A stretch of 20,104 nt of DNA from a virus (IMGVR_UViG_3300031382_000031:1-20104); one strand, 5' to 3'; positions 1,328 to 15,523 are shown, counted from the stretch's first letter. The notes: generated by a model from the sequence alone, not told the origin. Translations and numbers: made by a program.

Positions 1328-1352
1328 TATATATCTCCATGTTTTAAAATTG

Positions 1353-1370
1353 GGGAGGAGTTACCCTCCC
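1353..1370 (-). terminator. Hairpin between the VWA gene and the membrane-protein gene
   Basis: Read on the minus strand: GGGAGG, loop GTAACT, CCTCCC, then CCAATTTT. The stem is six G/C-rich pairs, but the T-run is short and interrupted, so termination would be weak. It lies downstream of the VWA stop (1387) and just before the ribosome site of the next gene. Confidence 0.5.
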
Positions 1371-1380
1371 TTTCAATTAC

Positions 1381-1389
1381 ATTATATCA
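1381..1389 (-). promoter_or_regulatory. TGATATAAT element (extended -10) overlapping the VWA stop codon
   Basis: The minus strand reads TTTGATATAATG, a consensus extended -10 (TG-N-TATAAT). Its TGA is also the stop codon of the VWA gene. I see no good -35 box. The same nine bases recur at 3497, 7579 and 12701, each time at a gene junction, which argues against chance. Confidence 0.5.
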
Positions 1390-3459: not shown

Positions 3460-3496
3460 ATATTTTTCTCCGCTGGTTTACTACTACTTCATAATT

Positions 3497-3526
3497 ATTA
3501 TATCAAAATGAAGGACACGTAGTCAG
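3497..3526 (-). promoter_or_regulatory. Promoter before the VWA gene
   Basis: Minus strand: CTGACT, 18 bases, TATAAT, with TGA directly before the -10 (extended -10). The predicted start is near 3490, about 30 bases before the VWA start codon. The -10 is perfect; the -35 matches TTGACA at four of six positions. Confidence 0.6.
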
Positions 3527-3543
3527 TCATTTAAGATCAATCT

Positions 3544-3744
3544 TTAACCTTCATAATTAATAACATTCCCATCTCTCAAAACCATGAACATAAAGCATCT
3601 TTCGGGAGCAATGACTTCAATCATTCCGTAAAATCCTTTGTGATCATTTACGTAATCCAAAGCTGCGTCATAAGCATTATCGCTTTTAACTTTTGACTCA
3701 TGACCTGCAGCTATGAGTAAAAATTCATTATCAATACTTATCAT
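3544..3744 (-). CDS. Small protein, unknown function
   Basis: 66 aa, beginning MISIDNEFLLIAAGH and ending DGNVINYEG. No family recognised. It has an alternating polar/hydrophobic pattern (residues 38-63) suggestive of a small alpha/beta fold. The start lies two bases after the upstream stop codon, with no strong ribosome site (only AAAGATAGA), so translation probably depends on coupling to the upstream gene. Confidence 0.6.
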   Translation of the reverse strand: MISIDNEFLLIAAGHESKVKSDNAYDAALDYVNDHKGFYGMIEVIAPERCFMFMVLRDGNVINYEG

Positions 3745-3746
3745 AA

Positions 3747-3944
3747 TTATCTATCTTTTTGATCAACAATAAGTTCGACTGCTTGTTCGCGAGTTAATGG
3801 AGAGAGACCTTCATGGGCGCTCTCTGCATCGCTGTAACAACCATTATGATCATTCCATTGTAGCCATTCGATGATCTGTTCACGAGTGCCTTGCTTAATA
3901 AGATATTGTTGGAAATCTTCTGAATGTGGATTGCCGTTCATCAT
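3747..3944 (-). CDS. Small protein, unknown function
   Basis: 65 aa starting MMNGNPHSEDF. I chose the ATG at 3944 because GGAG lies exactly eight bases upstream; a longer reading from a TTG at 3965 would place that ribosome site inside the coding region. The protein is polar, rich in Glu, Gln and His, with no membrane segment or known motif. It ends two bases before the next small gene. Confidence 0.65.
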   Translation of the reverse strand: MMNGNPHSEDFQQYLIKQGTREQIIEWLQWNDHNGCYSDAESAHEGLSPLTREQAVELIVDQKDR

Positions 3945-3973
3945 GATATAAACTCCAATCTTCAAAATTTTAG

Positions 3974-3996
3974 AAAAAAGGGAGGGGCTAAGCCCT
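3974..3996 (-). terminator. Rho-independent terminator after the winged-helix gene
   Basis: Minus strand: GAGGG, loop CTTAGC, CCCTC, then CCTTTTTT. It directly follows the stop codon at 4001. The short G/C stem plus six Ts is a typical intrinsic terminator. Confidence 0.7.
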
Positions 3997-4000
3997 CATG

Positions 4001-4273
4001 TTAAAGTGGCTTAACAGGATTTGGGTTGATCTGTGTAGTGTAAACTTCAACACCTTTCTGTGTAAGATTCACTACAGGCATATTCTCTTCCCAGTCCATA
4101 ATCTCCACAAGACCTTTCTTCGAGAGACTTCCCAGCACTCCACCAAGCGATCCCTTAGGAACAGTATTCTCAATGCTGCATGTCCAAATTTGATCTGTCA
4201 GATCATCACCAAACTCAGAGTTGTCAATTCCTGTCAGTACTTTCTCTTCCATTTCTGTCAGCTTAATAGTCAT
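4001..4273 (-). CDS. Small winged-helix-like protein
   Basis: 90 aa. The order of elements fits a winged helix: an N-terminal helix TEMEEKVLTGID (residues 6-17), a middle helix SLGGVLGSLSKKGLVEI (42-58) resembling a recognition helix, then a beta wing up to about residue 80 (MPVVNLTQKGVEVY), as in MarR/PadR-type DNA-binding proteins. That fold call is by eye. The start has AAGGAA about nine bases upstream. The gene is flanked by a strong promoter (4319-4347) and a terminator (3974-3996), so it could be a single-gene transcription unit, as expected for an early regulator. Confidence 0.65.
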   Translation of the reverse strand: MTIKLTEMEEKVLTGIDNSEFGDDLTDQIWTCSIENTVPKGSLGGVLGSLSKKGLVEIMDWEENMPVVNLTQKGVEVYTTQINPNPVKPL

Positions 4274-4318
4274 AATTTAGATTCCTTCGATTTATGGTTT
4301 TTGCCATTTGATGTATCC

Positions 4319-4347
4319 ATTATACTAAGGAATTGAGCAGTTGTAAA
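4319..4347 (-). promoter_or_regulatory. Strong sigma70/early-type promoter
   Basis: Minus strand: TTTACA, 17 bases, TATAAT, with a G before the -35 (GTTTACA). This matches the T4 early-promoter pattern. The predicted start is near 4312, about 40 bases before the winged-helix gene. Confidence 0.85.
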
Positions 4348-4354
4348 CATTTTT

Positions 4355-4858
4355 CTATTTAAAAATAACGCATGACAGATCACTAAAGTTCAAACTGTCG
4401 ATGATCTGTTCAATAGCGTCCCAATTTCCACCAGCAAGACCAGCTCCAATCTGTGGAATACCAATCTTATACTTCACATCCATGTCGTAAAGAAGCTTTA
4501 TCTGTTTGAATGCATTGTACACAGCTTGATAATCAACTGGCTTTTCGGCAGGATTCATTCCGTATTGTGTGTAAGCATTGATAACTGTGAAGTTGTAATT
4601 GATTGGCTTCACACCTCTAACACTTGGGGCAATTTGTCTAAGAGCTTGACCAGATACTCGAGCTTGAGTAATCATTCCAAGTTTATTGCGATCTCCTTTC
4701 ATAGTCATGCTATCCACACATCTAGCATTAGGAAGCTTTTCTGCGATCTGTTTAGCGATACCAGCTCCCATCGTACAAAAGCAATTGCAACCATGAACAA
4801 TAATATCAAACTCACCGTCTTCTGCAAGTGTAATCAAATTTCCTTCAACGTATTTCAT
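4355..4858 (-). CDS. Macro-domain protein (ADP-ribose-binding)
   Basis: 167 aa, a stand-alone macro domain. Visible motifs are GNLI at residues 6-9, the nucleotide-binding loop VHGCNCFCTMGAGIAKQI (about 21-38) and the second loop GIPQIGAGLAGGNWD (about 138-152). This pattern fits the Poa1/TARG1-like group, which removes the phosphate of ADP-ribose-1''-phosphate or removes ADP-ribose from proteins or nucleic acids. The Asn in HGCNCF is the usual catalytic or ligand-binding position. A ribosome site AGGTGA lies just before the ATG. In a phage this could recycle products of RNA repair or reverse a host ADP-ribosylation defence; the sequence does not decide between these. Confidence 0.88.
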   Translation of the reverse strand: MKYVEGNLITLAEDGEFDIIVHGCNCFCTMGAGIAKQIAEKLPNARCVDSMTMKGDRNKLGMITQARVSGQALRQIAPSVRGVKPINYNFTVINAYTQYGMNPAEKPVDYQAVYNAFKQIKLLYDMDVKYKIGIPQIGAGLAGGNWDAIEQIIDSLNFSDLSCVIFK

Positions 4859-4903
4859 ATCATCACCTAGTATAAGTTCTCAGAAAAAGTTCTGATTCGG
4901 ACA

Positions 4904-5104
4904 TCAGATAAATCCAACTACTACACCAAGAGGTGCAAGAAAAATACCAATGATTCGTAGAACGAATAGACCAGTAACTCCACTGTCCATATCAACAAGC
5001 TTAATGATATTCCAAACCCATCCCCATGCGGAAACGAATACTATCAATATCCACACGACAACAACTAACAGTTCAGTTAAAGTAAAGCCTTTTTGATTTT
5101 TCAC
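4904..5104 (-). CDS. Small membrane protein with a prepilin-like N-terminus
   Basis: About 66 aa. It begins (M)VKNQKGFTLTELLVVVV, which matches the type IV prepilin cleavage and methylation motif: basic residues, Gly, Phe, then Glu at +5 and a hydrophobic helix. A second hydrophobic segment (GLFVLRIIGIFLAPLGVVVGF) forms the C-terminus. The protein is therefore short, with two membrane passes and no pilin head domain. The start is one of two adjacent GTG codons (5107 or 5104); 5104 gives the eight-base spacing to GGAG seen at other genes here. It may be a phage membrane protein of the exclusion type that only resembles a prepilin by convergence. Confidence 0.6.
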   Translation of the reverse strand: MKNQKGFTLTELLVVVVWILIVFVSAWGWVWNIIKLVDMDSGVTGLFVLRIIGIFLAPLGVVVGFI

Positions 5105-5184
5105 CACATAATCTCCAATTTTGCATATTTAGAATTAATAGAAAGCAATTTTACTCTGTACCCTTTCTTAGTACAGAGTTTCAT
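5101..5184 (-). CDS. Possible 27-aa peptide
   Basis: A 27-codon frame starting MKLCTKKGYRVKLL and ending LEIMW, rich in Lys. A GAGGAAGAG stretch lies upstream. Its last codons overlap the start region of the next membrane-protein gene by 4-7 bases, as real neighbours do here. Against it, its first codons lie within a perfect 9-bp inverted repeat, so the segment may instead be a regulatory hairpin. Confidence 0.35.
   Translation of the reverse strand: MKLCTKKGYRVKLLSINSKYAKLEIMW
5153..5179 (-). repeat. Perfect 9-bp inverted repeat
   Basis: Arms 5153-5161 and 5171-5179 are exact reverse complements, ACTCTGTAC and GTACAGAGT, with a nine-base centre. On the minus strand the hairpin is followed by AAAATTG rather than Ts, so it is not a classic terminator in the direction of the genes. 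It could be an operator or an mRNA structure. Confidence 0.6.
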
Positions 5185-5207
5185 TATATTCTCTTCCTCA
5201 CCAAGTA

Positions 5208-5375
5208 TTACAGAATATAAGCAATTTTTACACCAAGGTTTGCTCGATAACTAATCTTTTCTGCTATGTCCATTTCTTTTTCTCGATAGCGAGCTTCTTT
5301 TTCTCTTATTGATTTTGCAAGATCAGAAGCTTCAAAGGCACTGATCAGCTCATCTTTTTTCTTTTTTCTAAACAT
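5208..5375 (-). CDS. Small charged helical protein downstream of the helicase
   Basis: 55 aa, starting MFRKKKKDELISAFEA and ending LGVKIAYIL. It is highly charged (Lys/Glu-rich) and probably one long helix or coiled coil over residues 5-45. No family recognised. The start is three bases after the helicase C-terminal stop (TAA GCC ATG), with GGGA seven bases upstream, so it is likely translated with the helicase fragment. The short length makes it easy to miss. Confidence 0.6.
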   Translation of the reverse strand: MFRKKKKDELISAFEASDLAKSIREKEARYREKEMDIAEKISYRANLGVKIAYIL

Positions 5376-5378
5376 GGC

Positions 5379-5924
5379 TTAATCCCACTCTATGTCTGTG
5401 ACTTTCTTTTCAAGCTTTTTCTTACCATCACCTGGCTTTCGCTTGCCTACCTTTTTAGCTGTTTGTTCTGGTTCTCCACCTACATCAGAATATCTCATCT
5501 TATCCCAATCGATATTGACAAGCTCTGGTTTTGCATGAGATTTATTGCCCCAACGAGTTTTAAGAAGATGAACACACTGTTGCCCATTATCTTTCAACAC
5601 TTCATCTTGTGTTACAGCAATAAACCAATCTAGTGTCGCAGGTAATCCGAAACTGTTTTTTGTTAAGATGTCATTAGCATAAAACAAATTATCACCAGAC
5701 ACAGAGATGTCTATAAGCTCTCTTTCATCTAATTCTTCAATTTCAATTATTTCATCATTAAAATTAATTAGCTTTTGATCAGTATATTCTTCGCGCTCCT
5801 TTTTATTAATTTCTTCTTTGTAAATATAATCGGCTATCTGAAAAATATCTAACTCAATACTGCTGTCAAATTTCATCAATTTATCTGCTTGTACTAAACA
5901 TTTCTCATAAATATTATTGTTCAT
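5379..5924 (-). CDS. 41: Replicative helicase gp41, C-terminal part with C-terminal split intein
   Basis: 181 aa. Residues ~54-90 are a C-terminal split-intein piece: IEELDERELIDISVSG followed by LFYANDILTKN ending in Asn90. The C-extein starts at Ser91 with SFGLPATLDWF, which matches the helicase segment found at this position in T4 gp41, and continues to a basic tail (KVGKRKPGDGKKKLEKK). The intein piece closely resembles the gp41-1 split intein as I remember it. The residue before the final Asn is Lys, where most inteins have His. Residues 1-53 are an extra N-terminal extension not needed for splicing. The start overlaps the endonuclease gene by 11 bases, with GAGG upstream. Spliced with the N-terminal partner, the helicase would be 459 aa (T4: 475). 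Confidence 0.9.
   Translation of the reverse strand: MNNNIYEKCLVQADKLMKFDSSIELDIFQIADYIYKEEINKKEREEYTDQKLINFNDEIIEIEELDERELIDISVSGDNLFYANDILTKNSFGLPATLDWFIAVTQDEVLKDNGQQCVHLLKTRWGNKSHAKPELVNIDWDKMRYSDVGGEPEQTAKKVGKRKPGDGKKKLEKKVTDIEWD
5655..5765 (-). other. C-terminal split-intein piece (gp41, gp41-1 type)
   Basis: About 37 residues ending ANDILTKN before Ser+1. It carries the block F/G region, with the catalytic Asn and a Ser nucleophile in the extein. Confidence 0.85.
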
Positions 5925-6159
5925 TAATACTTTCCTCTATAAACTTAAGTACTTTATATTCTTTGTTTGTTTCAATTGACCAGACAGAGAATATCTTAAA
6001 TCCATTGTCTCTAGCAACTTCTTCTTTATACTTATCTTTTAGATAGGCATCTTCTCTATTTTTGCCAAAAAATTCCCCAATATATCTAAAGACACCATCA
6101 TCTTCGATACTTATAGGGTGCCATGCTATTCCATGATATTCTATTATACCGGAAAGCAT
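5914..6159 (-). CDS. Vsr-like (EDxHD-type) homing endonuclease, truncated
   Basis: 81 aa between the two helicase halves. IIEYHGIAWHP (residues 5-15) and KDKYKEEVARDNGFKIFSVW (about 41-60) match the core strand-WH and the helix plus last strand of Vsr-type PD-(D/E)xK nucleases known as free-standing genes inside genes fractured by split inteins. The N-terminal part that normally carries the first conserved Glu and the metal-binding Asp about ten residues before IEYHG is missing, and an in-frame TAA directly precedes the ATG. It is therefore probably inactive, or a remnant. Its stop overlaps the start of the helicase C-terminal gene by 11 bases. The region is more AT-rich than the helicase coding sequence. 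Confidence 0.7.
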   Translation of the reverse strand: MLSGIIEYHGIAWHPISIEDDGVFRYIGEFFGKNREDAYLKDKYKEEVARDNGFKIFSVWSIETNKEYKVLKFIEESINEQ

Positions 6160-6165
6160 TTAAAC

Positions 6166-7536
6166 TCAATAAGAACTAATTTTACTACTTATTTTTAATC
6201 CATCGTTTATTGACATACGGCCATCTTTTGTTGGAAAAACATGATCAGCACTGCATATAATTTCTTTTCCTGATTTCATTTTAATTCTATATGACTTTTT
6301 AATTTTTGGACAGTGTTTCATTCTTACAACTTTATATCCGTCATGTGACAATATTTCATCTCCAACTGAAACATCCTTTAGTAGTATATCACCCTTAGTT
6401 TTTTCAGTTATGACACTATATGGATCAAGACATTCACTGGTAGAAGTCATATCTGGTGATTTATCATTGAAGCCATCACGATTGATTTGAGTCGCAGTCA
6501 TAATAGGAATTTCAAATTCCACAGCGAGACCACGAAGCTCTTCGGCGATTGCTTTAATGTACGTATACGAATTCACTCCTGCCATTGATTTATATCTGGA
6601 AGATGCACAGATATTGATATAGTCGATGAAGACGAAGTCAGGATTAAATTTTTTCTTCTGTTTGAGTTCTTTAAGCAAATGTCTGAAGTGGCCAGAGTGA
6701 GCTGCGCTAGTTGGGTATTCTTTCGCAAAGAATCGACCATGAGTCTTTGACTTAACTTTATCAACCTTTTTAAGATACTGTTCTTTAGAAAGTTTCTCAA
6801 GATCATCTGTCGATATATCGAGAAGGTTAGCCTCAACACGTTGCATCACCAATTCTTCTGCCATCTCCATTGTGATATACAGAACATCTTTACCTTGCTT
6901 GAGTAATTCACCCGCAAGATAACACATCATAGCAGACTTGCCCACATTCGTGCCCGCTAGGATACAGCTTAATGCTTTTCGTTTATGCCCACCATTTGAC
7001 AATCGGTTTAGAGCAGACAGAGAAAATGGAACTCTAGCATCTTCGTCTGTATACATGTCATGACGACGGTCAGCATCATCAAAGAACTCCATACCAATCG
7101 TAGTGTCAAACGATACAGACAAAGCATCATCCAACATGTCAGGAATAGCATGAGCATCTAACTCTTTATCATTTCCATCAAGAATGTTAATTGATCGGTA
7201 GATCGCAGAATAAAGTTTCTTATTCTTACAGTAATCTTCTGTCTCGTCTACAAGCCAGTCAATGTTAGGAAGATCATCTTTATCATTATAGCATTCATCA
7301 ATCAGTTCGACAATCTCAGAGAATTCACCTTCTGAAATAGATCTCTTCTGTAGGGAGATTGCTAAAGCATCAAGATTAGGAACGGTATTGTATTTGTCGA
7401 ATAGTTCTTTATACGTTTCAAATAGTGTCTTTTGATATCCATCAAAATATTCACTCTCAAGATAAGGTAAAACTTTTCGAACAAACTCATCAGAATATAG
7501 TAATGCTTTAAAGATGGATTGTTCTATTGATACCAT
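6166..7536 (-). CDS. 41: Replicative helicase gp41, N-terminal part with N-terminal split intein
   Basis: 456 aa. DnaB-family 5'-3' hexameric helicase that unwinds the fork. Residues 1-~150 are the N-terminal domain. The ATPase core has Walker A GTNVGKS (195-201), a following ITMEM segment (221-225) and Walker B FVFIDYIN (301-308), then TATQINRDG (347-355). At residue 368 (TSTSE) the protein passes directly into an intein: Cys369, LDPYSVITEKTKGDILL, block B CSADHVFPT, ending KISSKISSY at 456. The intein piece is 88 aa, the same size as I recall for the gp41-1 N-piece. ATG is preceded by AGGG. A terminator and a TGATATAAT element sit upstream, separating it from UvsX. Confidence 0.93.
   Translation of the reverse strand: MVSIEQSIFKALLYSDEFVRKVLPYLESEYFDGYQKTLFETYKELFDKYNTVPNLDALAISLQKRSISEGEFSEIVELIDECYNDKDDLPNIDWLVDETEDYCKNKKLYSAIYRSINILDGNDKELDAHAIPDMLDDALSVSFDTTIGMEFFDDADRRHDMYTDEDARVPFSLSALNRLSNGGHKRKALSCILAGTNVGKSAMMCYLAGELLKQGKDVLYITMEMAEELVMQRVEANLLDISTDDLEKLSKEQYLKKVDKVKSKTHGRFFAKEYPTSAAHSGHFRHLLKELKQKKKFNPDFVFIDYINICASSRYKSMAGVNSYTYIKAIAEELRGLAVEFEIPIMTATQINRDGFNDKSPDMTSTSECLDPYSVITEKTKGDILLKDVSVGDEILSHDGYKVVRMKHCPKIKKSYRIKMKSGKEIICSADHVFPTKDGRMSINDGLKISSKISSY
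6169..6432 (-). other. N-terminal split-intein piece (gp41)
   Basis: 88 residues from Cys369 (TGT at 6432-6430) to the stop. Contains block A with the Cys nucleophile and block B with SxxH-type CSADH. Confidence 0.88.
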
Positions 7537-7550
7537 GAGAATCCCTATAG

Positions 7551-7577
7551 AAAAAGAAGGTCCGTTTAAGAACCCTC
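7551..7577 (-). terminator. Terminator between uvsX and gp41
   Basis: Minus strand: GAGGGTTC, loop TTAAAC, GGACCTTC, then TTTTT. The eight pairs include two G-U wobbles. It is followed by the gp41 ribosome site and begins directly after a TATAAT box. Confidence 0.65.
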
Positions 7578-7578
7578 T

Positions 7579-7587
7579 ATTATATCA
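7579..7587 (-). promoter_or_regulatory. TGATATAAT element before gp41
   Basis: Extended -10 with no clear -35 box. The predicted start falls inside the 5' arm of the adjoining terminator hairpin, so a transcript begun here would not form that hairpin. Confidence 0.45.
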
Positions 7588-7599
7588 TTGTTTATTGGA

Positions 7600-8166
7600 T
7601 TATTCTTCAGAATTAAGAATCTCTCCAGTGTCTTCATCAAGTTCTTCGCCGTCGTTGAGCATATCATCGATCTTGCTCTGAAGCAAAGGATCACCACCAC
7701 CGAAGCAATACATACTCTTAACAGCTTCATTGAATGTTGTATCTTTCAGTATAGGGTCCCAGAATTTTGTAGTTGATGTTTCTTTACGACGCCAGTTTTT
7801 ATCGTCTTCAACATTTGCTCTTGCATACCAACCCATCTTAGGTTTAACAACATGCCCTGTAGCAATCGCAATATCAAGTAGACCAGAATAAGTATCTAAG
7901 CCACTGCCATAAAGAACTTCAAATGGAATCGCCGACTTCTCTCGAATAGTACGAGACTTTTCAACGTTAAGAATGAACTGCCAACCGATAACATCTTTAC
8001 CTTCTTTGATCTGCCGTTTACCGACAATGAATACGTTGTTAGCAGAATACATTGGTCCAGTGTTATGAGTGATAACACCATTTTCTAGTACATAGTTTTC
8101 TTCATCTCTAACAGAGATATCATATACATTATGCTTACCGATTCGTTCAACACTTTTTACTTTCAT
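7600..8166 (-). CDS. uvsX: UvsX recombinase, C-terminal part with C-terminal split intein
   Basis: 188 aa. Residues 1-35 are a C-terminal intein piece of the DnaE-like pattern: MKVKSVERIGKHNVYDIS, then ENYVLENGVITHN with His34-Asn35. The C-extein starts at Thr36 with TGPMYSANNVFIVGKRQ, matching the segment after the L2 loop of T4 UvsX, and continues to an acidic tail (DGEELDEDTGEIL) like that used by UvsX to contact partners. The ATG overlaps the stop of the N-terminal gene (ATGA). Joined to the upstream fragment, this gives 376 aa against 391 in T4. Confidence 0.92.
   Translation of the reverse strand: MKVKSVERIGKHNVYDISVRDEENYVLENGVITHNTGPMYSANNVFIVGKRQIKEGKDVIGWQFILNVEKSRTIREKSAIPFEVLYGSGLDTYSGLLDIAIATGHVVKPKMGWYARANVEDDKNWRRKETSTTKFWDPILKDTTFNEAVKSMYCFGGGDPLLQSKIDDMLNDGEELDEDTGEILNSEE
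8062..8166 (-). other. C-terminal split-intein piece (UvsX)
   Basis: 35 residues, ending VITHN before Thr+1. Standard penultimate His and terminal Asn are present. Confidence 0.9.
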
Positions 8167-9128
8167 TTAGCACCCTTCTTAGCTTTAATTTGAGCATCAT
8201 CTCCGGGTTTAAGGTCTTTTGCTTCTACCCACTGATCATTTACAAGGAACTTGTGATTTTCACTACATTCCACAATAAATCCATCTTCAAACTCTACAGA
8301 GATACATTGTGGATTTCCATTTTCTAAAGTTTTTGGATTCCAAGTCTGGTGTACTTCTTTCATACCATTCTTAGTAGCAACAAACTCACCTACTTCAATA
8401 TCTTCAATATTCTTATATGATCCTTGTGCTGTAAGAATACGAGTACCAGGAAGTAAGCAACCACCTGACATAATCTGTTTCGGTGCACCCATTGATCCCA
8501 TATCATCATAAGTATGCATAGTGCCAATCATTGACATTTCACATCGATCAAAGTAAGGAGTTGCGATACGAAAGAATGCTTTCAGAGCCTTAGCACGTGT
8601 ACCCATATCAGCAGCAGGATTGTCAGACATTGCATCTCGTACTTCTTTGATAGACGCAAGGTTACCAATTGAATCCACAAAGACAACAAACCTTGGTTTA
8701 TCTTCTTCTTTTTTAGCGGATTCATATTCTGCACGAATGTCTTCAAGCTTAGTGACCAAGTCAAACTTTAACTCTTCAACGTTCATCACTGGAACATAGA
8801 TAACACGCTCAACATCAATGCCTACTGATTCAAAGTACTCTTGTGAAGCACCACCTTCAGAATCATAGAAGATCATGTGAGCATCAGGATAAGCATCGAG
8901 ATACGCCTTACACGCAATCAGACCAAACAGAGTTTTGAATGACTTGGATTTACCCGCTAGACAAGTAACACCTTGATTCAGTCCACCATTTAATAGATCA
9001 CCACTGAAAGCAAGGTTAAGACCATACACTCCAGTGTCATGTAGTTTCTTTTCCTTTTCTAGTATTTTTGAAAATTTACCAGCTCCATAGAGCTTTGTTG
9101 ATTTTGCAAACTTATCTGCTAAACCCAT
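8163..9128 (-). CDS. uvsX: UvsX recombinase, N-terminal part with N-terminal split intein
   Basis: 321 aa. RecA-family strand-exchange protein that coats single-stranded DNA and drives recombination-dependent replication. It has Walker A GKSKSFKT (59-66), a YDSEGG segment (88-93), Walker B VVFVDSIG (148-155) and IGTMHTYDD (201-209). The extein ends KQIMSGG at residue 223, in the DNA-binding L2 loop (aligned with TTGG of E. coli RecA). Residues 224-321 are a 98-aa intein N-piece: Cys224 LLPGTRILTAQGS, block B ECSENHKFLV, ending IKAKKGAK. The two halves overlap by 4 bases and no endonuclease lies between them. AAGGA lies seven bases before the ATG and overlaps the upstream stop codon. Confidence 0.94.
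   Translation of the reverse strand: MGLADKFAKSTKLYGAGKFSKILEKEKKLHDTGVYGLNLAFSGDLLNGGLNQGVTCLAGKSKSFKTLFGLIACKAYLDAYPDAHMIFYDSEGGASQEYFESVGIDVERVIYVPVMNVEELKFDLVTKLEDIRAEYESAKKEEDKPRFVVFVDSIGNLASIKEVRDAMSDNPAADMGTRAKALKAFFRIATPYFDRCEMSMIGTMHTYDDMGSMGAPKQIMSGGCLLPGTRILTAQGSYKNIEDIEVGEFVATKNGMKEVHQTWNPKTLENGNPQCISVEFEDGFIVECSENHKFLVNDQWVEAKDLKPGDDAQIKAKKGAK
8166..8459 (-). other. N-terminal split-intein piece (UvsX)
   Basis: 98 residues from Cys224 (TGC at 8459-8457), with block A and the ENH of block B visible. Confidence 0.9.
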
Positions 9129-9138
9129 ATATGATTCC

Positions 9139-9693
9139 TTAGTGAAGTGTATTAAACAGTTTGTTCTTTACCTTTTCTTTGTCTAGGAAACCTGCATCTC
9201 CTAAAACATCAACGACATCTGTCATGAATTGCTGATAGTAGATAATACCACTTTTCTTTAGATACTCTTCTACACTAGTTAAACGCTTCTTGACGTTGTC
9301 TTGAGATGAGTTAAGAAATTCAGTATCTTCGGCAATACTACTTGCTACCATATCAAGCAATTGAATATCGTATTGTAAACTTTTATGAAGCCTTGTAGTT
9401 AGATATGAAGAAACTTTCTTATCTTCTCCATCGGAAAAGATTGAAAAGTCAGATTTAATCAAATCTTCATGTCCTTCATCAGGAGCTTCGATTTGAAAGA
9501 ACATTTGATCAATAAAGCATATTGTATTTTCAGCCGTATCAAAATCAATCGTAAACATATATTCATCAGCTGAACTTACTGCTTCGTTTACTGTCCCTGA
9601 TACACCTGTCTTAGTGCTACAAGTCGTAAGTAGCTCTCGAAACAAATCCTCTTTTCCAGAGTTTGATTCTAATGTAAGTATAAGTTTTGCCAT
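9139..9693 (-). CDS. Unknown protein between polymerase and uvsX
   Basis: 184 aa starting MAKLILTLESNSGKED. The ATG at 9693 is preferred because AAGAG lies six bases upstream; a GTG at 9738 would add 15 residues without a better site. The protein is acidic in the middle (APDEGHEDL, FSDGEDK), with predicted helices in residues 110-184, including SVEEYLKKSGIIYYQQFMTD. No family recognised and no membrane segment. Its position inside the replication core suggests a role in replication or recombination, but the sequence does not show one. Its stop codon overlaps the ribosome site of uvsX. Confidence 0.7.
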   Translation of the reverse strand: MAKLILTLESNSGKEDLFRELLTTCSTKTGVSGTVNEAVSSADEYMFTIDFDTAENTICFIDQMFFQIEAPDEGHEDLIKSDFSIFSDGEDKKVSSYLTTRLHKSLQYDIQLLDMVASSIAEDTEFLNSSQDNVKKRLTSVEEYLKKSGIIYYQQFMTDVVDVLGDAGFLDKEKVKNKLFNTLH

Positions 9694-9756
9694 AAGTATC
9701 TCTTTGCTATCGAGTGAATATGATATATTGTAACACACATCTATTAGATAATGATA

Positions 9757-11100
9757 TCAAAAGCTAAACATATCAACTTTTTCTTCTTCCGAATATCGAA
9801 TCACATCGAGATAGATACGAAGTGGTTGTAAGAATGACTTTTCTAGCATAAGCTCACGATTTACATATTTTTCGAGTTCAAATTCTTTTGGAAGATAAGT
9901 GTCAAATCCGATTACATCAACACTTGTAGGATTAGGCATTTTCAGTTCAACGAACTTGATTTTATTTCCATCAGTGATAGGCTCGATTCGTTTAAGATTC
10001 AATTTCTTTATCATTTGATTATGATTAATCGCAGCTTTAACATTCTTTGGTGTACCGCTCTTAAACAGTTTATCTTCATCGTACCACTTACCAATATTGT
10101 TAACACCACGTGGCATTGCAATATCATTGATAGATAAAGAGTGGAATTCATCTACGATCTCTTGAACACGCTTCTGTAGTGTTTCTTCTGATTCATTAAT
10201 ACATACACGGTAGCATTCTTTCAGATATGTTCTAGCCCATTGTGGAGTGCTAGACTTAACTGACTCCATACCCATAATTTTATAGTAGGGATCATTAAGA
10301 TAGCGAGTACCTTCATCGTCAAATACAGACATGACATATTTCTTTTTGCCTACCCATACTGCGCGATTGGATATGATCTCTCTACTCCAAAACATACGCT
10401 GCTCATAACAGTTCATATAATCAGCAAGCTCTTGACAGCGTTCTTCAATCTTAGGTTGAATCACTTCGTCTGAGAAATGTTCAATTGTATTAAGTAGCTT
10501 AGCACGATCCATATCTTTAAGCGTATCAACAAACGGCTTGATCGTAAAGTAACCAGAGTCAGTATCACTGTAAATCCAGAAAGCTTGCTTTGAATCAAAT
10601 ATCTTCTGTAAGAATTCATTGATGTAGCTACATGTCCAGCGATTGATCAATTGTCCTGACATGGTGATAGCTTCAGCATTCTCTACCTTATAGTATAAGA
10701 AGTGTTTGTTACCAAGAGCACCATAGCCACCGTTAAGTAGAATCTTCAGACCCATCTGCATGTTATTAGCAGCAGACTCTAAAGCATCATATTTATCTTT
10801 ATCAGATTTGCTTCCACTTTCATCAGCATCAACATTCTGTTGTTTATAGCCTAGCATCTTTTTCTTGTATGATTTACGTTCAGAATATATTTCACGTTTG
10901 ATTTCAGAAAAGAAAGACATTCGATCTGTACGATAGCATTCACCGTTTGCTGTAATAGTCATATCTGTTATATTTAAAACATCCGATAAGTCTTTAGACA
11001 TATTCTCATTTAAGAAATAGTTAACATTGACTTTATCTATTTCTTTTTTAAAATCGTTCTCTAAGTATTCTTTAAGTTCTAATAATCTTTTTTTATCCAT
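9757..11100 (-). CDS. 43B: DNA polymerase gp43, C-terminal subunit (fingers, palm, thumb)
   Basis: 447 aa. Second half of a family B replicative polymerase. The fingers/motif B segment KILLNGGYGALGN is at 119-131, motif C YSDTDS at 177-182 (Asp179 and Asp181 are catalytic), and the KxY-like segment KKKYVMSV follows. The C-terminus EEKVDMFSF resembles the clamp-binding tail of T4 gp43. Residues 1-~55 are a highly charged helical lead (MDKKRLLELKEYLE...) with no match to a conserved polymerase block. GAGG lies five bases before the ATG. It lacks motif A and the exonuclease, which are on the upstream subunit, so activity needs both chains. The two subunits sum to 897 aa, against 898 in T4. Confidence 0.93.
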   Translation of the reverse strand: MDKKRLLELKEYLENDFKKEIDKVNVNYFLNENMSKDLSDVLNITDMTITANGECYRTDRMSFFSEIKREIYSERKSYKKKMLGYKQQNVDADESGSKSDKDKYDALESAANNMQMGLKILLNGGYGALGNKHFLYYKVENAEAITMSGQLINRWTCSYINEFLQKIFDSKQAFWIYSDTDSGYFTIKPFVDTLKDMDRAKLLNTIEHFSDEVIQPKIEERCQELADYMNCYEQRMFWSREIISNRAVWVGKKKYVMSVFDDEGTRYLNDPYYKIMGMESVKSSTPQWARTYLKECYRVCINESEETLQKRVQEIVDEFHSLSINDIAMPRGVNNIGKWYDEDKLFKSGTPKNVKAAINHNQMIKKLNLKRIEPITDGNKIKFVELKMPNPTSVDVIGFDTYLPKEFELEKYVNRELMLEKSFLQPLRIYLDVIRYSEEEKVDMFSF

Positions 11101-11291
11101 TCGTACCTCTTCTGTCCACAGTCGTAATATCTATAAATGCTATTGGATTCTAATATTGACTTTACTGTACATTTTCTAGAATATACGATAGTATCATTAA
11201 TTGATAAAGCAGAACTTAATAAAGAGCATATATTATCATATTTAGACAGTACATCAAAATCTGTAACATGAATTAAGATGACCTTTATTGG
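11079..11291 (-). pseudogene. Startless open frame in the gap between the polymerase halves
   Basis: The 204-base gap holds a 70-codon frame bounded by stops, reading ...VTDFDVLSKYDNICSLL..., then SRKCTVKSILESNSIYRYYD and CGQKRYEWIKKDY, with no ATG, GTG or TTG. It runs 22 bases into gp43B in another frame. The segment is AT-rich (11161-11220: 14 G/C of 60). It could be the tail of a decayed homing endonuclease; I cannot name the family. Confidence 0.35.
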
Positions 11292-11305
11292 TTAAAAAGT
11301 ATTCT

Positions 11306-12658
11306 TTAATCAAAGTCTTTAAGTCTTTCATTAATTTCCTCTAATGCTTTTTCTTTAAAAACATTTATAGGAACATGAGTTTCAGGCCCAATGTTCCATT
11401 GCTGCTCTATGTGAGGGTATAGTGAATTTAAGTCGTATGATACAACCCAATCATGAAATCCTTTTATTGGTTCTTTAACGTATGCACCTTCAAACTCTCG
11501 TTCTTCAATAATCTTTTCACGACGGAATGGAGGAACGACATTTTTACTATAGAGGAATTTAGCAACTAGCTTTTCCCATATCTTTACAGTACCCATTGTA
11601 TCTTCAAAGTTACATAGAGAATAGTAAGACATAGCATATATGAGAGACATCAGTCCAAGCTTTTCATCTAGACGTTTGATGATATCTACGTCACGAATGT
11701 TGTAGTCAATGAATAGTTGATAGTTCTTTTCATATAAGTCTTGAAGATCGCCATAATCATCATAAGTCAACTTTTCTTCGCCAAGTTCAGCATGACCGAT
11801 AAAATCAAGACGATATGATTCACGTGGAGTATAAGTATGCTTCTTGTAGATTTGCATGTAGTCGAGATGAGGCATACCTACAAAGTTATAAACAGTTTGC
11901 ATTTGACCAAAGTTAGCTCTTACTTCACGTTCATCGATTTTATTGAACGGAGATAGCATCTTTTTGGTGTATGCTTCACCAAGTACTTTGTTACATCTGT
12001 TTACAATGTAAGGTACGTCGAAACCTTCAGAGTGCCAACCAGTCAGTACATCAAATCTGCTTTCTTGTACATAGGATAGGAATGCACGAAGTAGAGATTC
12101 TTCATCCATAAAACCAATATACTTAACTTTTAGGTCTTTGATCTTTTTGTCAACATTATCTTTCGACCAACCGCCACAACCATCATATTCAAGACCAAGT
12201 GTCGTAAAAACTTTTGTTACAGAATCATATGTGGTGATAGCGTTGATTGGATACTTTGCTTCATAAGGATCAGGAAAGCCATCGGTTGCATGAACCTCGA
12301 TGTCAGTCATACCAATACGAATAAGATCGGCGTTGTAGTCTGGAGTTTTACCTTCAAACAATTCGATCATAAACTGATTGGCATAATCAGAGTTACCACA
12401 GATTCCTATTTCTGGAAGTTCTTTGTACTCTTCAGCAAATCCTTTAGCGTCTCGCATTGAATCAAATTCAACTGCTTTAACGTCTTGATTGTAGATATTC
12501 TTTAAGCCTGTCTCTTCTTCTGTCACTGTATATAGTGTTGGCTTATAGAAATCTACTACTTTTGATTTAGTGACAGGATCGTTGTTTGACTTGTAGCGAA
12601 TTAATATCTTATTACCTTGTTTATAGTAATAAGTGTAGAACATTTGATCTGATGACAT
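11306..12658 (-). CDS. 43A: DNA polymerase gp43, N-terminal subunit (exonuclease and start of palm)
   Basis: 450 aa. First half of the T4-type family B polymerase. The 3'-5' proofreading exonuclease is complete: Exo I Asp119/Glu121 in MTDIEV, Exo II Asp214 in TGWHSEGFD, Exo III Asp323 in YNIRDVDII. Polymerase motif A SYDLNSLYP (Asp409) follows, then NIGPETHVP, and the protein ends ALEEINERLKDFD. The break is in the loop between motif A and the fingers, where T4 gp43 has a variable stretch. I chose ATG 12658 because GGAG is six bases upstream; a TTG at 12670 would swallow that site. No intein motif is visible at the break, so the halves must associate non-covalently. Confidence 0.93.
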   Translation of the reverse strand: MSSDQMFYTYYYKQGNKILIRYKSNNDPVTKSKVVDFYKPTLYTVTEEETGLKNIYNQDVKAVEFDSMRDAKGFAEEYKELPEIGICGNSDYANQFMIELFEGKTPDYNADLIRIGMTDIEVHATDGFPDPYEAKYPINAITTYDSVTKVFTTLGLEYDGCGGWSKDNVDKKIKDLKVKYIGFMDEESLLRAFLSYVQESRFDVLTGWHSEGFDVPYIVNRCNKVLGEAYTKKMLSPFNKIDEREVRANFGQMQTVYNFVGMPHLDYMQIYKKHTYTPRESYRLDFIGHAELGEEKLTYDDYGDLQDLYEKNYQLFIDYNIRDVDIIKRLDEKLGLMSLIYAMSYYSLCNFEDTMGTVKIWEKLVAKFLYSKNVVPPFRREKIIEEREFEGAYVKEPIKGFHDWVVSYDLNSLYPHIEQQWNIGPETHVPINVFKEKALEEINERLKDFD

Positions 12659-12671
12659 TAAAATCTCCAAT

Positions 12672-12700
12672 AAAAAAGGATGGCTTTACACCATCCTTTT
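12672..12700 (-). terminator. Strong terminator between gp56 and gp43A
   Basis: Minus strand: AAAAGGATGG, loop TGTAAAG, CCATCCTTTT, with the T-run continuing (six Ts in all). The 10-bp stem is perfect. It ends just before the gp43A ribosome site. Confidence 0.85.
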
Positions 12701-12709
12701 ATTATATCA
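12701..12709 (-). promoter_or_regulatory. TGATATAAT element before gp43A
   Basis: Extended -10 directly abutting the terminator stem; no good -35 box. The predicted start (about 12694) lies in the 5' arm of the hairpin. Confidence 0.5.
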
Positions 12710-12741
12710 AAGTTTGCTAGCAATTTATGAACAATTTAGAA

Positions 12742-13257
12742 TCAATATCCACTATCATAACGACGTTTGTTTTCAGCGTTCTTCAACATATATAGAATAT
12801 AGATGTCTTTGGAAGTAAGTCCAAGTGCAAGAAATTTGTTCATCATAAAGTGCCAGATGTCAATCATTTCAAATAGCATTTCAAGCCGATCTTCATCAGG
12901 CATCTCAGAAATTAACTCATTTGAAATATCTTGATGATTCGCCTTCCACTTTTTCCAAACAGCAGATGCTTCTTTTTCGCCTTTGCTCATACCACCAATA
13001 GCATTCTTCAGCTCTCGAAACTCATCCATGATAGCATCGTAGTTACGATCCATCCAATCAACCATCTGACCTTTTGTTTTTACTTGGTCTGGACTAATGT
13101 TATCTTCTGGTAGTTTCTTTGCAAGAATTGTCTGTAGCCAATTTTGCATGTTAAGCATGTCTTGCAAAGGATCATCAGATTCAATGAATGCATTTTCAAT
13201 TTCTGTTACTTTGTCTTTATCTTGAATAAGATCAGCACATGAATTATATTCAGCCAT
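12742..13257 (-). CDS. 56: dCTPase/dUTPase, gp56-like
   Basis: 171 aa, the same length I recall for T4 gp56. All-alpha dimeric dUTPase/MazG-type pyrophosphatase that hydrolyses dCTP and dUTP to the monophosphates. In a T4-type phage this keeps cytosine out of the DNA and supplies dCMP to the hydroxymethylase. Metal-site motifs are DEFRE (78-82) and EMIDIW (130-135), with the family signatures EKEASAVWKKWK (94-105) and the closing KNAENKRRYDSGY. The N-terminus (LIQDKDK, DPLQDMLNMQ) also follows T4 gp56. AAGGA lies seven bases upstream. It sits just after the methyltransferase gene and is followed by a strong terminator. Confidence 0.93.
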   Translation of the reverse strand: MAEYNSCADLIQDKDKVTEIENAFIESDDPLQDMLNMQNWLQTILAKKLPEDNISPDQVKTKGQMVDWMDRNYDAIMDEFRELKNAIGGMSKGEKEASAVWKKWKANHQDISNELISEMPDEDRLEMLFEMIDIWHFMMNKFLALGLTSKDIYILYMLKNAENKRRYDSGY

Positions 13258-13340: not shown

Positions 13341-14558
13341 TTACTGATTCTCAAACAAATCAATAATTTGTTCTTCTGAATGAGACTCAAAATCTATTTC
13401 TTCTTTCCAATTATTCTGCTTAACAAAATCAGAGTTTGAAAATTCTAATTCACCAAGAATAAATTTTTTTGCTTCAAGAACAATGTCACGTGCTGTGTGT
13501 ACTGGAACATTTTGTGCAATATGATTCATATTCTTTTTTCCACCTAATAACTCAAAATCAATTGGAAAACTCATAATATATAAACACTCACCAATAGTCA
13601 ATGATCTATCTTCTATTGGGTGTAGAACTGAAGTCATATTTCTTCCAGTTAGAGCACCAATATTATTGTCATATATGTTTATAGAGCTATCCCATATATT
13701 ACCTCCAGCAGATAGCTTATTTTTTATGTATAGAGCACTATCATATGCTTTAACATCACCATCATTTTTAAAAAAATCTATAGCTTCATCTAACAGTTTA
13801 TTGTTATTCACAAATTGCAAAACTGATTTTGTATTACTATCTTTTACCATTTGTCGTATATCTAGATTACAAAATTTATAACTTAAAAATCTAAAATACG
13901 AATCACTTAATATTTTTGTGTTAGTATGATCTAAATTAATACTATTAGGCTTATATGATAAAACGTAATCGTCAAATTTGTCATAACTATGATTATAAAA
14001 ATTCATATAAGGTGCAACTTTAGATTTCCATAAAATAGCAAAACATCTACGTCTATCTTGTGGAATTCCATGACGAATAGTTGAGGTTTTATATAAAGTC
14101 AAAGAATAACCATTTTCTTTAGCTATGTTATATATTTTATCTACAACCGGTTTACCTTTTTTTGTATATAAAGCTGGAGCATTTTCAACTAATATGACTT
14201 TAGCATCTAATTTTTTAATAGCATCTGTTATACTAATATACATCCATTCATTTTGCGCGCACCCAGGGCCGTGTGAATCAGGATTCTTACTAGAGTTAAA
14301 AGAAGATAATCCAGCACACGGAGGAGTACATACTACAATATCAACAGGATCTAAGTCTTCTTTATCGTCTATTGAAACATATGGAATGTTTCTATTTTTT
14401 ATTTTTTGTTGATAATTTACATAGTGCGAATCATTTAATTCAAATCCTTTATAACTATATATAGCAGATGGTGGTACATTTAAAGCTAATTCAGCACCAA
14501 GTGGAAATCCACCAATAAGTGGTATGAGCGGGGCGAATGTAATTTTATGATTATTCAT
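13341..14558 (-). CDS. DNA cytosine-C5 methyltransferase
   Basis: 405 aa. Transfers a methyl group from S-adenosylmethionine to cytosine C5. Motif I is PLIGGFPLGAELAL (13-26), an altered form of the usual FAGIGG. Motif IV, CTPPCAGLSSF (77-87), has catalytic Cys81; motif VI is ENAPAL (125-130); motif VIII QDRRRCF (167-173); motif X-like HIAQNVPVHTARDIV follows near the C-terminus. All key residues are present, so it looks active. The variable target-recognition region (about 180-330) is large and unlike anything I can name, so specificity is unknown. Its ATG overlaps the glycosyltransferase stop by one base (TAATG). The gene is AT-rich compared with its neighbours, a sign of transfer. Confidence 0.9.
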   Translation of the reverse strand: MNNHKITFAPLIPLIGGFPLGAELALNVPPSAIYSYKGFELNDSHYVNYQQKIKNRNIPYVSIDDKEDLDPVDIVVCTPPCAGLSSFNSSKNPDSHGPGCAQNEWMYISITDAIKKLDAKVILVENAPALYTKKGKPVVDKIYNIAKENGYSLTLYKTSTIRHGIPQDRRRCFAILWKSKVAPYMNFYNHSYDKFDDYVLSYKPNSINLDHTNTKILSDSYFRFLSYKFCNLDIRQMVKDSNTKSVLQFVNNNKLLDEAIDFFKNDGDVKAYDSALYIKNKLSAGGNIWDSSINIYDNNIGALTGRNMTSVLHPIEDRSLTIGECLYIMSFPIDFELLGGKKNMNHIAQNVPVHTARDIVLEAKKFILGELEFSNSDFVKQNNWKEEIDFESHSEEQIIDLFENQ

Positions 14559-15400
14559 TAAATATACGATCTAAATAGTGAATTTTCTGAATTTTCTAAT
14601 TTAGCAACACCATATTTATAAGCTTTTTTAAATTGAATATGTGTAGTTAATTTAGTTAATCCTTTCCAAGGCCCAGATTTAGCAGTCTTTTCTTTAGTTT
14701 TTACGAAATCTGGCCACAACTTTGATAACTTTATTTGCGATTCGTTATGCACATCTATATTTCTCCATACAGAACAACCTCCGTCAGTATTTGTATCTGA
14801 TGGATTAACCATGTATTTTGTAGAAATTCTATTTTTAATTCCACTAGTTAGCAATTGGAGAGTTACATCAAAATCTTCAGCTGCTGGCACTCTATCCCAT
14901 TTAATATCAACTGGAAATAAAGGTCCATTATAAAAAGTGTTTGTCATAACTCTATAATTTTCGCTATATGGCCATAGATTTATGCTAGGCACAATCCATG
15001 TAGTACCCAATCCACCAAAAACAATACCTTCGTCCATCCAAGAATCAATAGTATTAAACATATCATCAAAATCTGAATCAGTATATTTCCAAGATATCCA
15101 TTTTGGTGCACCATCAGATAAATCTTTATTGGGTTCTTTTACTGTAAAATTCAAATCATCATCAAATACCATGTGACGTGAATCTTTAAAATTATTAAAA
15201 ATCCATTCTCTTGTTGGTGCTATAGTATTTATTTCTTTTGGCAAACATATAACTTTGTCTCCATATAACTCTGCCATTTTTTCAAATTCATGATGTTGGA
15301 CTATAAATTTAGTTATATTTTTATACTTATCAGGTAAATTATTATATGTTATTTGATTATGAATTCTACCTAATGTTGGTATAACGATGTGACTTATCAT
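14558..15400 (-). CDS. Glycosyltransferase, TET-associated (TAGT)-like
   Basis: 280 aa from ATG 15400, which has GAGG seven bases upstream; a longer reading to 15430 lacks a site. GT-A-type glycosyltransferase: IVIPTLGRIHNQ at 5-16, INTIAPTREWIF at 58-68, and the metal-binding FDDDLNF at 79-85. The order and spacing resemble phage TET-associated glycosyltransferases, which attach sugars to 5-hydroxymethyl pyrimidines in DNA. A later segment PAAEDFDVTLQLL and a GCSVWRN segment could be acceptor-side elements. Placed between dCMP hydroxymethylase and a C5 methyltransferase, it probably glycosylates hydroxymethylcytosine. Neither T4 alpha- nor beta-glucosyltransferase is seen in this window. It is AT-rich like the methyltransferase. 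The family assignment is from memory of motifs. Confidence 0.75.
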   Translation of the reverse strand: MISHIVIPTLGRIHNQITYNNLPDKYKNITKFIVQHHEFEKMAELYGDKVICLPKEINTIAPTREWIFNNFKDSRHMVFDDDLNFTVKEPNKDLSDGAPKWISWKYTDSDFDDMFNTIDSWMDEGIVFGGLGTTWIVPSINLWPYSENYRVMTNTFYNGPLFPVDIKWDRVPAAEDFDVTLQLLTSGIKNRISTKYMVNPSDTNTDGGCSVWRNIDVHNESQIKLSKLWPDFVKTKEKTAKSGPWKGLTKLTTHIQFKKAYKYGVAKLENSENSLFRSYI

Positions 15401-15523
15401 GTAATATCCTCTTGTCAATATATATAACAATGTACGTTTGTTGACACTAACCTACTTCAAACCTTGACTACGAATCAATGTGTATTTCATATAGGTTATC
15501 CTTAGTTAGTTTTAAAATTCATT

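What the first reader, a model, noticed from the sequence alone, without database searches (positions are those of the whole stretch)
5379..12658. Three adjacent replication genes are each fractured, by three different arrangements
gp43 is split without an intein, uvsX by a split intein alone, and gp41 by a split intein plus a homing-endonuclease remnant, all within about 7.3 kb. Fractured genes with split inteins and Vsr-like endonucleases are known from environmental phage DNA, and split gp43 from some T4-like phages. Three together would be a series of stages of the same invasion and decay process. The phage's replisome would depend on two trans-splicing reactions and one subunit assembly.
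Basis: partly seen in the sequence, partly recalled or inferred. Interest (0 to 1): 0.75.

Follow-up and report, generated by a model that had tools for sequence, protein, structure and literature searches.

The report
Three replication genes broken by endonucleases
A T4-like virus of bacteria carries its DNA polymerase, recombinase and helicase genes each cut in two by remnants of selfish DNA-cutting genes; two of the proteins are probably rejoined by protein splicing and one by assembly of its halves, and relatives show the same breaks at every stage from full invader to nearly healed.

Summary
gp43, uvsX and gp41 are each broken in six independently assembled contigs (99.6-99.99% identical), while relatives with the same gene order have all three intact. 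The predicted spliced lengths (376 and 459 aa) are right. One correction: the gp43 gap is not plain. It encodes a decayed Hef-like homing endonuclease (HEG) frame (E=3e-6), so gp43 and gp41 both keep HEG remnants and only uvsX has lost its HEG entirely.

Interpretation: three separate HEG invasions at conserved sites, caught at different stages of decay. Relatives supply the stages at all three sites: empty, full HEG, HEG deleted, and for uvsX a contiguous mini-intein whose linker is the former ribosome-binding site. In every deletion compared with an intact HEG, the part kept is the HEG's 3' end, which carries the start signal of the downstream half.

It is not unique. The uvsX and gp41 split inteins occur at the same sites in cultured phages. 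All three genes are also broken in Vibrio phage vB_VmeM-32 and two environmental contigs. Trans-splicing and gp43 two-chain assembly are inferred, not shown. New member of a known kind ('fractured genes'); the most interesting part is the decay and re-fusion series in the relatives.

The parts
11306..12658 (-). gp43 N-half (450 aa): exonuclease domain and palm up to motif A (DLNSLYP)
   Evidence: phrog_262 7e-137, Pfam DNA_pol_B_exo1 1e-18; intact homologues L008, L009, pf16; ATG at 12658 preceded by GGAG
11079..11285 (-). Remnant of a Hef-like homing endonuclease in the gp43 gap: end of the nuclease domain joined to the extreme C-terminus; its stop overlaps the gp43C start and its codons contain the gp43C ribosome-binding site (AGAAGAGG)
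   Evidence: phrog_3339 homing endonuclease E=3.2e-6; alignment with RaK2 and Bakedbeans proteins at both ends; no start codon in frame
9757..11100 (-). gp43 C-half (447 aa): fingers, palm motifs (LLNGGYG, SDTDS), thumb; about 25-residue N-terminal head not found in intact homologues
   Evidence: phrog_262 2e-131; head compared with L111 and L193, split at the same place
8460..9128 (-). UvsX N-extein (223 aa, ends ...IMSGG)
8163..8459 (-). UvsX split intein, N-part (98 aa, starts CLLPGT); its tail codons (KAKKGAK) contain the ribosome-binding site AGAAGGG of the C-half
   Evidence: homologous to IntN of Pm5461, TG1, Thanatos-1, VmeM-32, L121; SD
8062..8166 (-). UvsX split intein, C-part (35 aa, MKVKSV...ITHN); ATGA overlap with the upstream stop
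   Evidence: Pfam Intein_splicing 1e-6; A1 alignment; gap -4 nt in all six sequences compared
7600..8061 (-). UvsX C-extein (153 aa, starts TGPMYS) and stop
   Evidence: T4_UVSX_C 2e-18; phrog_18112 7e-66
6433..7536 (-). gp41 helicase N-extein (368 aa, ends TSTSE)
   Evidence: phrog_19 3e-90, DnaB_C 6e-18
6166..6432 (-). gp41 split intein, N-part (88 aa, starts CLDPYS)
   Evidence: gp41-1 intein PDB 6qaz E=1.4e-14; same site in Shigella phage ESh36
5914..6159 (-). 81-codon remnant: C-terminal 77 residues of a ~376-aa EDxHD/Vsr-like homing endonuclease; no ribosome-binding site of its own
   Evidence: 52% identity to residues 297-371 of the 376-aa HEG of L214, E=3e-21; VmeM-32 E=1e-5; SD check
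5655..5924 (-). gp41 split intein, C-part (90 aa with a ~57-aa leader; ends ILTKN); ribosome-binding site GAGGAAAG lies inside the HEG remnant
   Evidence: 6qaz E=1.5e-9; leader and TKN shared by L202, L212, L213, L214, ESh36
5379..5654 (-). gp41 C-extein (91 aa, starts SFGLPA) and stop
   Evidence: phrog_19 positions 522-595; intact L008 TSTSESFGLPA

Best explanation
A T4-like phage's replication operon was invaded three separate times by homing endonuclease genes at conserved sites of gp43 (between motif A and the fingers), uvsX (SGG|TG) and gp41 (TSE|SFGL). In uvsX and gp41 the HEG sat between the halves of a split intein; in gp43 it entered without one. Each HEG then decayed: entirely lost in uvsX, leaving ORFs that overlap as ATGA; cut to its last 77 codons in gp41; reduced to an internally deleted, startless 68-codon frame in gp43. 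The part kept is the 3' end of the HEG, because it holds the ribosome-binding site of the downstream gene half, so decay proceeds from the 5' side (inferred from comparison). The phage should make UvsX and gp41 by protein trans-splicing and gp43 as two chains that assemble non-covalently (inferred; shown for other split gp43s, not here).
For: Breaks recur in six contigs. Intact syntenic relatives. uvsX split intein at the same site with a full HEG in Pm5461, TG1, Thanatos-1 and L121 and in many IMG/VR stretches. gp41 split intein at the same site with full HEG in ESh36, L212, L214, L194; HEG deleted with 73 nt of its 3' end kept in L213; 3-nt gap in L202/L203. gp43 same site: full HNH HEG in L111, truncated HNH remnant in L193. 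Remnants match HEG C-termini. SDs of gp43C and gp41 IntC lie inside the remnants. Cys1, Asn and Thr/Ser+1 present in both inteins. Exonuclease motifs, DLNSLYP, LLNGGYG and SDTDS present in gp43. Split gp43 of Aeromonas phage 25 co-purifies and is active (PMC2988022).
Against: No splicing, assembly or expression data. The gp41 intein ends TKN, not the usual THN (but so do all five other inteins compared at this site). The Hef-like match covers only 43 residues at E=3e-6, and the HEG once in the window's own uvsX is not seen; it is inferred from relatives. The AlphaFold model of gp43C alone is poor (mean pLDDT 66, palm below 50), so it says little about assembly. The '3'-end kept' rule rests on about five informative deletions.
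Confidence: 0.82

Rival explanations
1. The uvsX break is a recent frameshift in a contiguous mini-intein rather than a HEG-less split intein: one lost base would give exactly the ATGA overlap.
For: Contiguous 130-140-aa mini-inteins exist at this site in relatives; the two frames differ by one base with nothing between.
Against: The C-part starts at the same MK[VI]K methionine as most split alleles and has its own ribosome-binding site; the state is fixed in all six sequences compared. The two histories differ only in the last step.
Confidence: 0.2
2. The breaks are assembly or sequencing errors, or the genes are dead.
For: Three broken essential genes side by side is unusual; the window is a 20-kb fragment.
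Against: Same breaks in six contigs from different samples; intact catalytic motifs; complete intein splice residues; same breaks at the same sites in cultured phages.
Confidence: 0.02
3. The gp43 gap is a group I or II intron and one polymerase chain is made after RNA splicing.
For: Phage polymerase genes elsewhere carry introns (general knowledge); head and tail of the halves differ from intact homologues.
Against: No Rfam intron match even at E 10; the gap holds a HEG remnant ending at the gp43C start, with an SD before that start; relatives L111 and L193 have HEG or HEG remnant there.
Confidence: 0.03
4. gp41 no longer splices (TKN instead of THN) and works as two non-covalent chains, as gp43 does.
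For: The last-but-one His usually assists splicing (PMC7765530); here it is Lys.
Against: Lys is present in all six inteins compared at this site, with full, truncated or no HEG, while the rest of the splicing motifs is conserved: a lineage trait, not decay.
Confidence: 0.1
5. The fractures are kept because they regulate replication, for example by delaying active UvsX and gp41 until halves meet.
For: Fractures at these sites are widespread.
Against: States vary between nearly identical phages, including loss of HEG and re-fusion, and many relatives lack them, which fits tolerated parasites better.
Confidence: 0.07

Closest known systems
Fractured genes with split inteins and EDxHD/Vsr-like endonucleases (Dassa et al. 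2009, NAR 37:2560; known here only through citing papers)
   Same: Gene halves each fused to half an intein, same strand, Vsr-like HEG (here a remnant) between them; gp41 among the hosts; the gp41 intein is a relative of gp41-1
   Different: HEG is truncated; insertion appears about 12 residues downstream of the gp41-1 site (SGY|SSSDV, from memory); Lys in place of the last-but-one His; two further genes broken alongside
Vibrio phage vB_VmeM-32 (KU160494, cultured)
   Same: gp43, uvsX and gp41 all broken in the same gene order; uvsX at the same site; Vsr-like HEG in gp41
   Different: gp43 in about five pieces with HNH gene, Vsr-like gene and split intein; uvsX keeps a SegG-like ORF; gp41 broken at the Walker A site with a full 378-aa HEG. 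Its paper (PMC6483233) does not mention inteins or homing genes in its main text
Split gp43 of Aeromonas phages 44RR and 25
   Same: Family B polymerase as two genes without intein; phage 25 also has a HEG there; its halves co-purify and are active (PMC2988022)
   Different: Break lies about 75-100 residues later, in the fingers (measured on 44RR); the spacer differs from the Hef-like remnant here
uvsX split intein of Proteus Pm5461, Yersinia TG1, Shewanella Thanatos-1
   Same: Same insertion site and homologous intein halves
   Different: Those have a complete HEG between the halves; the window has none and the ORFs overlap by 4 nt
gp41 split intein of Shigella phage ESh36 (ON528746)
   Same: Same insertion site, same TKN ending, same overlap of HEG end and IntC start
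   Different: Complete 332-aa HEG; uvsX intact

Membership tests
Fractured gene (Dassa type) | Two neighbouring same-strand ORFs, each an extein half fused to half of one intein | tested here: met
   uvsX and gp41
Fractured gene (Dassa type) | Intact relatives without the insertion, break exactly at the intein site | tested here: met
   L008 ..IMSGGTGG.. and ..TSTSESFGL..; 22 contigs with the empty uvsX site, 3 with the empty gp41 site
Fractured gene (Dassa type) | Homing endonuclease gene between the halves | tested here: inconclusive
   gp41: only the C-terminal 77 residues remain; uvsX: none in the window, present in relatives
Fractured gene (Dassa type) | Protein trans-splicing | not testable with these tools
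   Residues present; no experiment
Class 1 split intein, gp41-1 relative | Cys1, block B His, terminal Asn, Ser/Thr/Cys+1 | tested here: met
   Both inteins
Class 1 split intein, gp41-1 relative | Last-but-one His (usual, not universal) | tested here: not met
   gp41 TKN; shared by ESh36, L202, L212-L214. UvsX has THN
Class 1 split intein, gp41-1 relative | Sequence relationship to gp41-1 | tested here: met
   6qaz E=1.4e-14 and 1.5e-9
EDxHD/Vsr-like homing endonuclease (81-aa ORF) | Full-length protein with the nuclease's first catalytic E and D | tested here: not met
   Aligns only to residues 297-371 of 376 in L214; upstream E and D region missing: a remnant
Hef-like homing endonuclease (gp43 gap) | Sequence match to the family | tested here: met
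   phrog_3339 E=3.2e-6; end pieces align with RaK2 and Bakedbeans proteins
Hef-like homing endonuclease (gp43 gap) | Complete open gene | tested here: not met
   No start codon, 68 codons instead of about 550, internal deletion: a remnant
Split gp43 of the 44RR/25 type | Break at the same position | tested here: not met
   Window breaks just after T4 residue ~427; 44RR in the fingers at ~T4 500-525
Split gp43 of the 44RR/25 type | Halves assemble into an active polymerase | not testable with these tools
   Models of single halves: N-half mean pLDDT 80 with palm strip below 50; C-half 66

The most novel reading that the evidence does not exclude
Fracture is a two-way, directional cycle. A HEG splits a gene; decay removes the HEG from its 5' side because its 3' end doubles as the start signal of the downstream half; a last in-frame deletion turns that ribosome-binding site into a linker and re-fuses the split intein into a contiguous mini-intein, which then moves on between phages. 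The window catches three steps of the cycle in one operon.
Probability: 0.55. Interest if true: 0.7.

Novelty: new member of a known kind. Interest (0 to 1): 0.55.

Why it matters
It shows that a phage can apparently tolerate breaks in polymerase, recombinase and helicase at once, and it supplies, at three sites, naturally ordered intermediates of how selfish endonucleases enter and leave essential genes. A review states that split inteins may arise from contiguous mini-inteins by a break (PMC7765530); the uvsX alleles point the other way, split to contiguous, in nearly identical phages. The HEG-less split inteins, including a TKN-ending group related to the fast gp41-1 intein, are also possible protein-engineering parts.

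Tried and rejected
Group I/II intron in the gp43 gap: no Rfam match at E 10. Hidden split intein in gp43: no intein N- or C-part at either end. Assembly error: excluded by six contigs. TKN as intein decay: rejected, the Lys is conserved at this site. Within-species variation as a test of selection: window vs L007 has 28 nonsynonymous and 8 synonymous differences, near neutral and uninformative. An empty gp41 allele of this same phage was sought because L007 ends at the insertion site; none found in IMG/VR. Pfam does not recognise the two HEG remnants or the full EDxHD-type HEGs; PHROGs and direct comparison did the work. Nucleotide searches against phage records found only weak matches. Structure models of single gp43 halves: the exonuclease (N-half) and thumb (C-half) fold well, the palm does not when separated; no fold search was run on them. 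The original 'Fractured genes' paper is not held.

Full report
What is in the window. The window is a 20,104-bp virus record (G000) with its recognisable genes on the minus strand. From 12658 down to 5379 it carries gp43 N-half, a 205-nt gap, gp43 C-half, a 199-codon ORF of unknown function, uvsX N-half with IntN, IntC with uvsX C-half, gp41 N-half with IntN, an 81-codon ORF, and IntC with gp41 C-half. PHROGs and Pfam confirm each half.

The breaks are real. Five contigs from other metagenomes carry the region at 99.6-99.99% identity, with the same gp43 gap (208-209 nt between the coding halves) and the same ATGA overlap in uvsX; a sixth was found by its spacer. Intact, syntenic relatives exist: Pseudomonas phage pf16 and IMG/VR contigs L008 and L009 (55-75% identity to L008), with L010 partly covered. 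Among roughly 70 related gp43 loci nearly all are contiguous; besides the window's own cluster only L111 and L193 break gp43 at the window's site.

The gp43 gap is a HEG remnant. The gap has an open frame of 68 codons (11285-11079) without start codon. It matches phrog_3339, Hef-like homing endonucleases, at E=3.2e-6. The first ~45 residues (VILIHVTDFD...IVYSRKCTVKS) align with the end of the nuclease domain of the RaK2 protein (INLIHIHESDY...TIYARKCIVKE) and the last ~15 (YDCGQKRYEWIKKDY) with the very end of the Bakedbeans protein (YDCGNLKYVLKN): a gene shortened at its 5' side and internally, with its exact 3' end kept. Its last codons overlap the gp43C start and contain that gene's ribosome-binding site (AGAAGAGG). 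Two relatives are split at the same place: L111 has a complete 177-aa HNH endonuclease there and L193 a 177-nt remnant of an HNH endonuclease, again its C-terminal end. This place is therefore a repeated target. It is not the place where Aeromonas 44RR gp43 is split.

uvsX. The split intein lies at SGG|TG. Homologous split inteins lie at this site in cultured phages (Pm5461, TG1, Thanatos-1 and others; 34 records cover at least 80% of the N-half query including IntN) and in 87 stretches of IMG/VR, a few of them contiguous. The cultured examples I opened carry a HEG between the halves; the window has none, and its ORFs overlap by four bases. In six contigs (L176, L178, L180, L188, L200, L208) the intein is contiguous, with about 110-140 aa inserted.

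A natural decay series at the uvsX site. In one group the intein DNA is 97-100% identical over IntN, but three states occur: a complete HNH gene in a 732-nt spacer (L173, L147, L185); 36- or 52-nt spacers from two different deletions (L182; L183, L184, L186); and a contiguous frame (L176, L178, L188), where the deletion joins TAC to GAGGAAATTATG so that the former ribosome-binding site of IntC now codes the linker Glu-Glu-Ile. L188 and L185 have identical uvsX flanks on both sides and differ by the deletion of the HEG. L176 and L184 are 97% identical over 8 kb and differ in the uvsX state and in the presence of a second fracture, at the Walker A site of gp41. Between backgrounds whose extein DNA is only 65-90% identical, the intein DNA is mostly 98-100% identical, with sharp borders at the intein ends, so these alleles, HEG-less ones included, moved recently. 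Caution: identical inteins in several phages of one community can mislead short-read assembly; a chimera producing L188 would need two switches.

gp41. The intein lies at TSE|SFGL and is a relative of gp41-1 (PDB 6qaz; E=1.4e-14 for IntN, 1.5e-9 for IntC). Split inteins at the same site occur in Shigella phage ESh36 with a 332-aa HEG, in L212 (392 aa), L214 (376 aa) and L194 (356 aa) with full HEGs, in L213 where the HEG is gone except for 73 nt of its 3' end, and in L202/L203 with a 3-nt gap. The window's 81-codon ORF aligns to the last ~77 residues of the L214 HEG (52% identity, E=3e-21); the upstream part with the first catalytic residues is gone, and the ORF has no ribosome-binding site, whereas the IntC ORF has one inside the remnant (GAGGAAAG). 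The C-part ends TKN, not THN. That is shared by all six sequences compared at this site, so it is a lineage trait; its effect on splicing is unknown.

A common pattern. In the window's gp41 and gp43, in L193 gp43, in L213 gp41 and in L183/L184/L186 uvsX, what survives of the HEG is its 3' end, next to the downstream start codon. The simple reading is that this end is the translation-initiation region of the downstream half, so only deletions that spare it are viable. This is inference from about five independent cases.

How it most likely works. Shown by sequence: three HEG-associated breaks, different HEG families, different decay states, intact catalytic and splice-site residues. Inferred: UvsX and gp41 are joined by trans-splicing; gp43 works as two chains. 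The review by Edgell et al. reports that the split gp43 of phage 25 co-purifies and is active, and that insertion in functionally critical sites protects against imprecise loss (PMC2988022). At the gp43 site, the three split lineages share a charged, probably helical head on the C-half (window ..FKKEIDKVNV, L111 ..EQEIGKVNV, L193 ..KELSSQVNV) not present in intact homologues; a role in assembly is a guess. AlphaFold models of single halves fold the exonuclease and the thumb well, but not the palm, which is cut by the break.

Known or new. Each element is known: fractured genes with split inteins and Vsr-like endonucleases, split gp43, uvsX split inteins at this site. The combination also exists elsewhere: cultured Vibrio phage vB_VmeM-32 has gp43 in about five pieces, uvsX in two and gp41 in two, unremarked in its paper (PMC6483233); environmental contigs L166 (gp43 four pieces, uvsX two, gp41 three) and L194 (gp43 three, uvsX two, gp41 broken at the window site with its C-half beyond the contig end) are further cases. 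So this is a new member of a known kind. What seems less known is the gp43 Hef-like remnant, the retention of HEG 3' ends, and the split-to-contiguous step; a review describes the opposite direction, mini-intein to split intein (PMC7765530). My literature check covered only an open-access subset.

Noticed in passing
L185, L188, L147, L173, L182-L184, L186, L176, L178 (uvsX): Near-identical uvsX inteins in three states (split with HNH gene, split without, contiguous); in the contiguous form the old ribosome-binding site codes the linker EEI. L188 and L185 share identical flanks.
   Followed up: yes
L188 vs L176, L185 vs L184, L173 vs L185: Intein DNA mostly 98-100% identical while neighbouring extein DNA is 65-90% identical, with sharp borders at the intein ends: recent transfer, including of alleles without an endonuclease gene.
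   Followed up: partly
L166 (IMGVR 3300035698_004753), 3160-12803: gp43 in four pieces, uvsX in two, gp41 in three (Walker A site plus a second site ending THN|SGFDSSDVGL, apparently the gp41-1 site).
   Followed up: partly
window 6440 / L007 12661: Contig 3300028374_000095 ends a few bases before the gp41 intein insertion point, as expected if intein-bearing and empty alleles coexist in that sample.
   Followed up: partly
window 486-3702 / L006 around 10418: Contig 3300031209_000139 lacks about 3.2 kb present in the window, including a VWA-like 690-aa ORF (1387-3459).
   Followed up: no
window 9139-9738: Unknown ORF between gp43C and uvsX has 6 nonsynonymous and no synonymous differences between window and L007, with repeated changes at codons 10 and 48 in other contigs; the likely start is ATG 9693 rather than GTG 9738.
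   Followed up: partly
window 13341-16216: C5 cytosine methylase, a TET-associated glycosyltransferase (TAGT) and a thymidylate-synthase-family enzyme side by side suggest modified cytosines in the phage DNA; no TET-like oxygenase was recognised among the ORFs scanned.
   Followed up: no
window 4904-5107: 67-aa ORF with a type IV prepilin-like N-methylation motif (Pfam N_methyl, above cut-off), unusual in a phage; GTG start.
   Followed up: no
window 4355-4858: Macro-domain protein (Pfam above cut-off), a possible ADP-ribose-binding enzyme.
   Followed up: no
L092 6832-17273 (Vibrio phage vB_VmeM-32): Heavily fractured replication operon of a cultured phage, not mentioned as such in its paper; a convenient laboratory system for testing these breaks.
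   Followed up: yes
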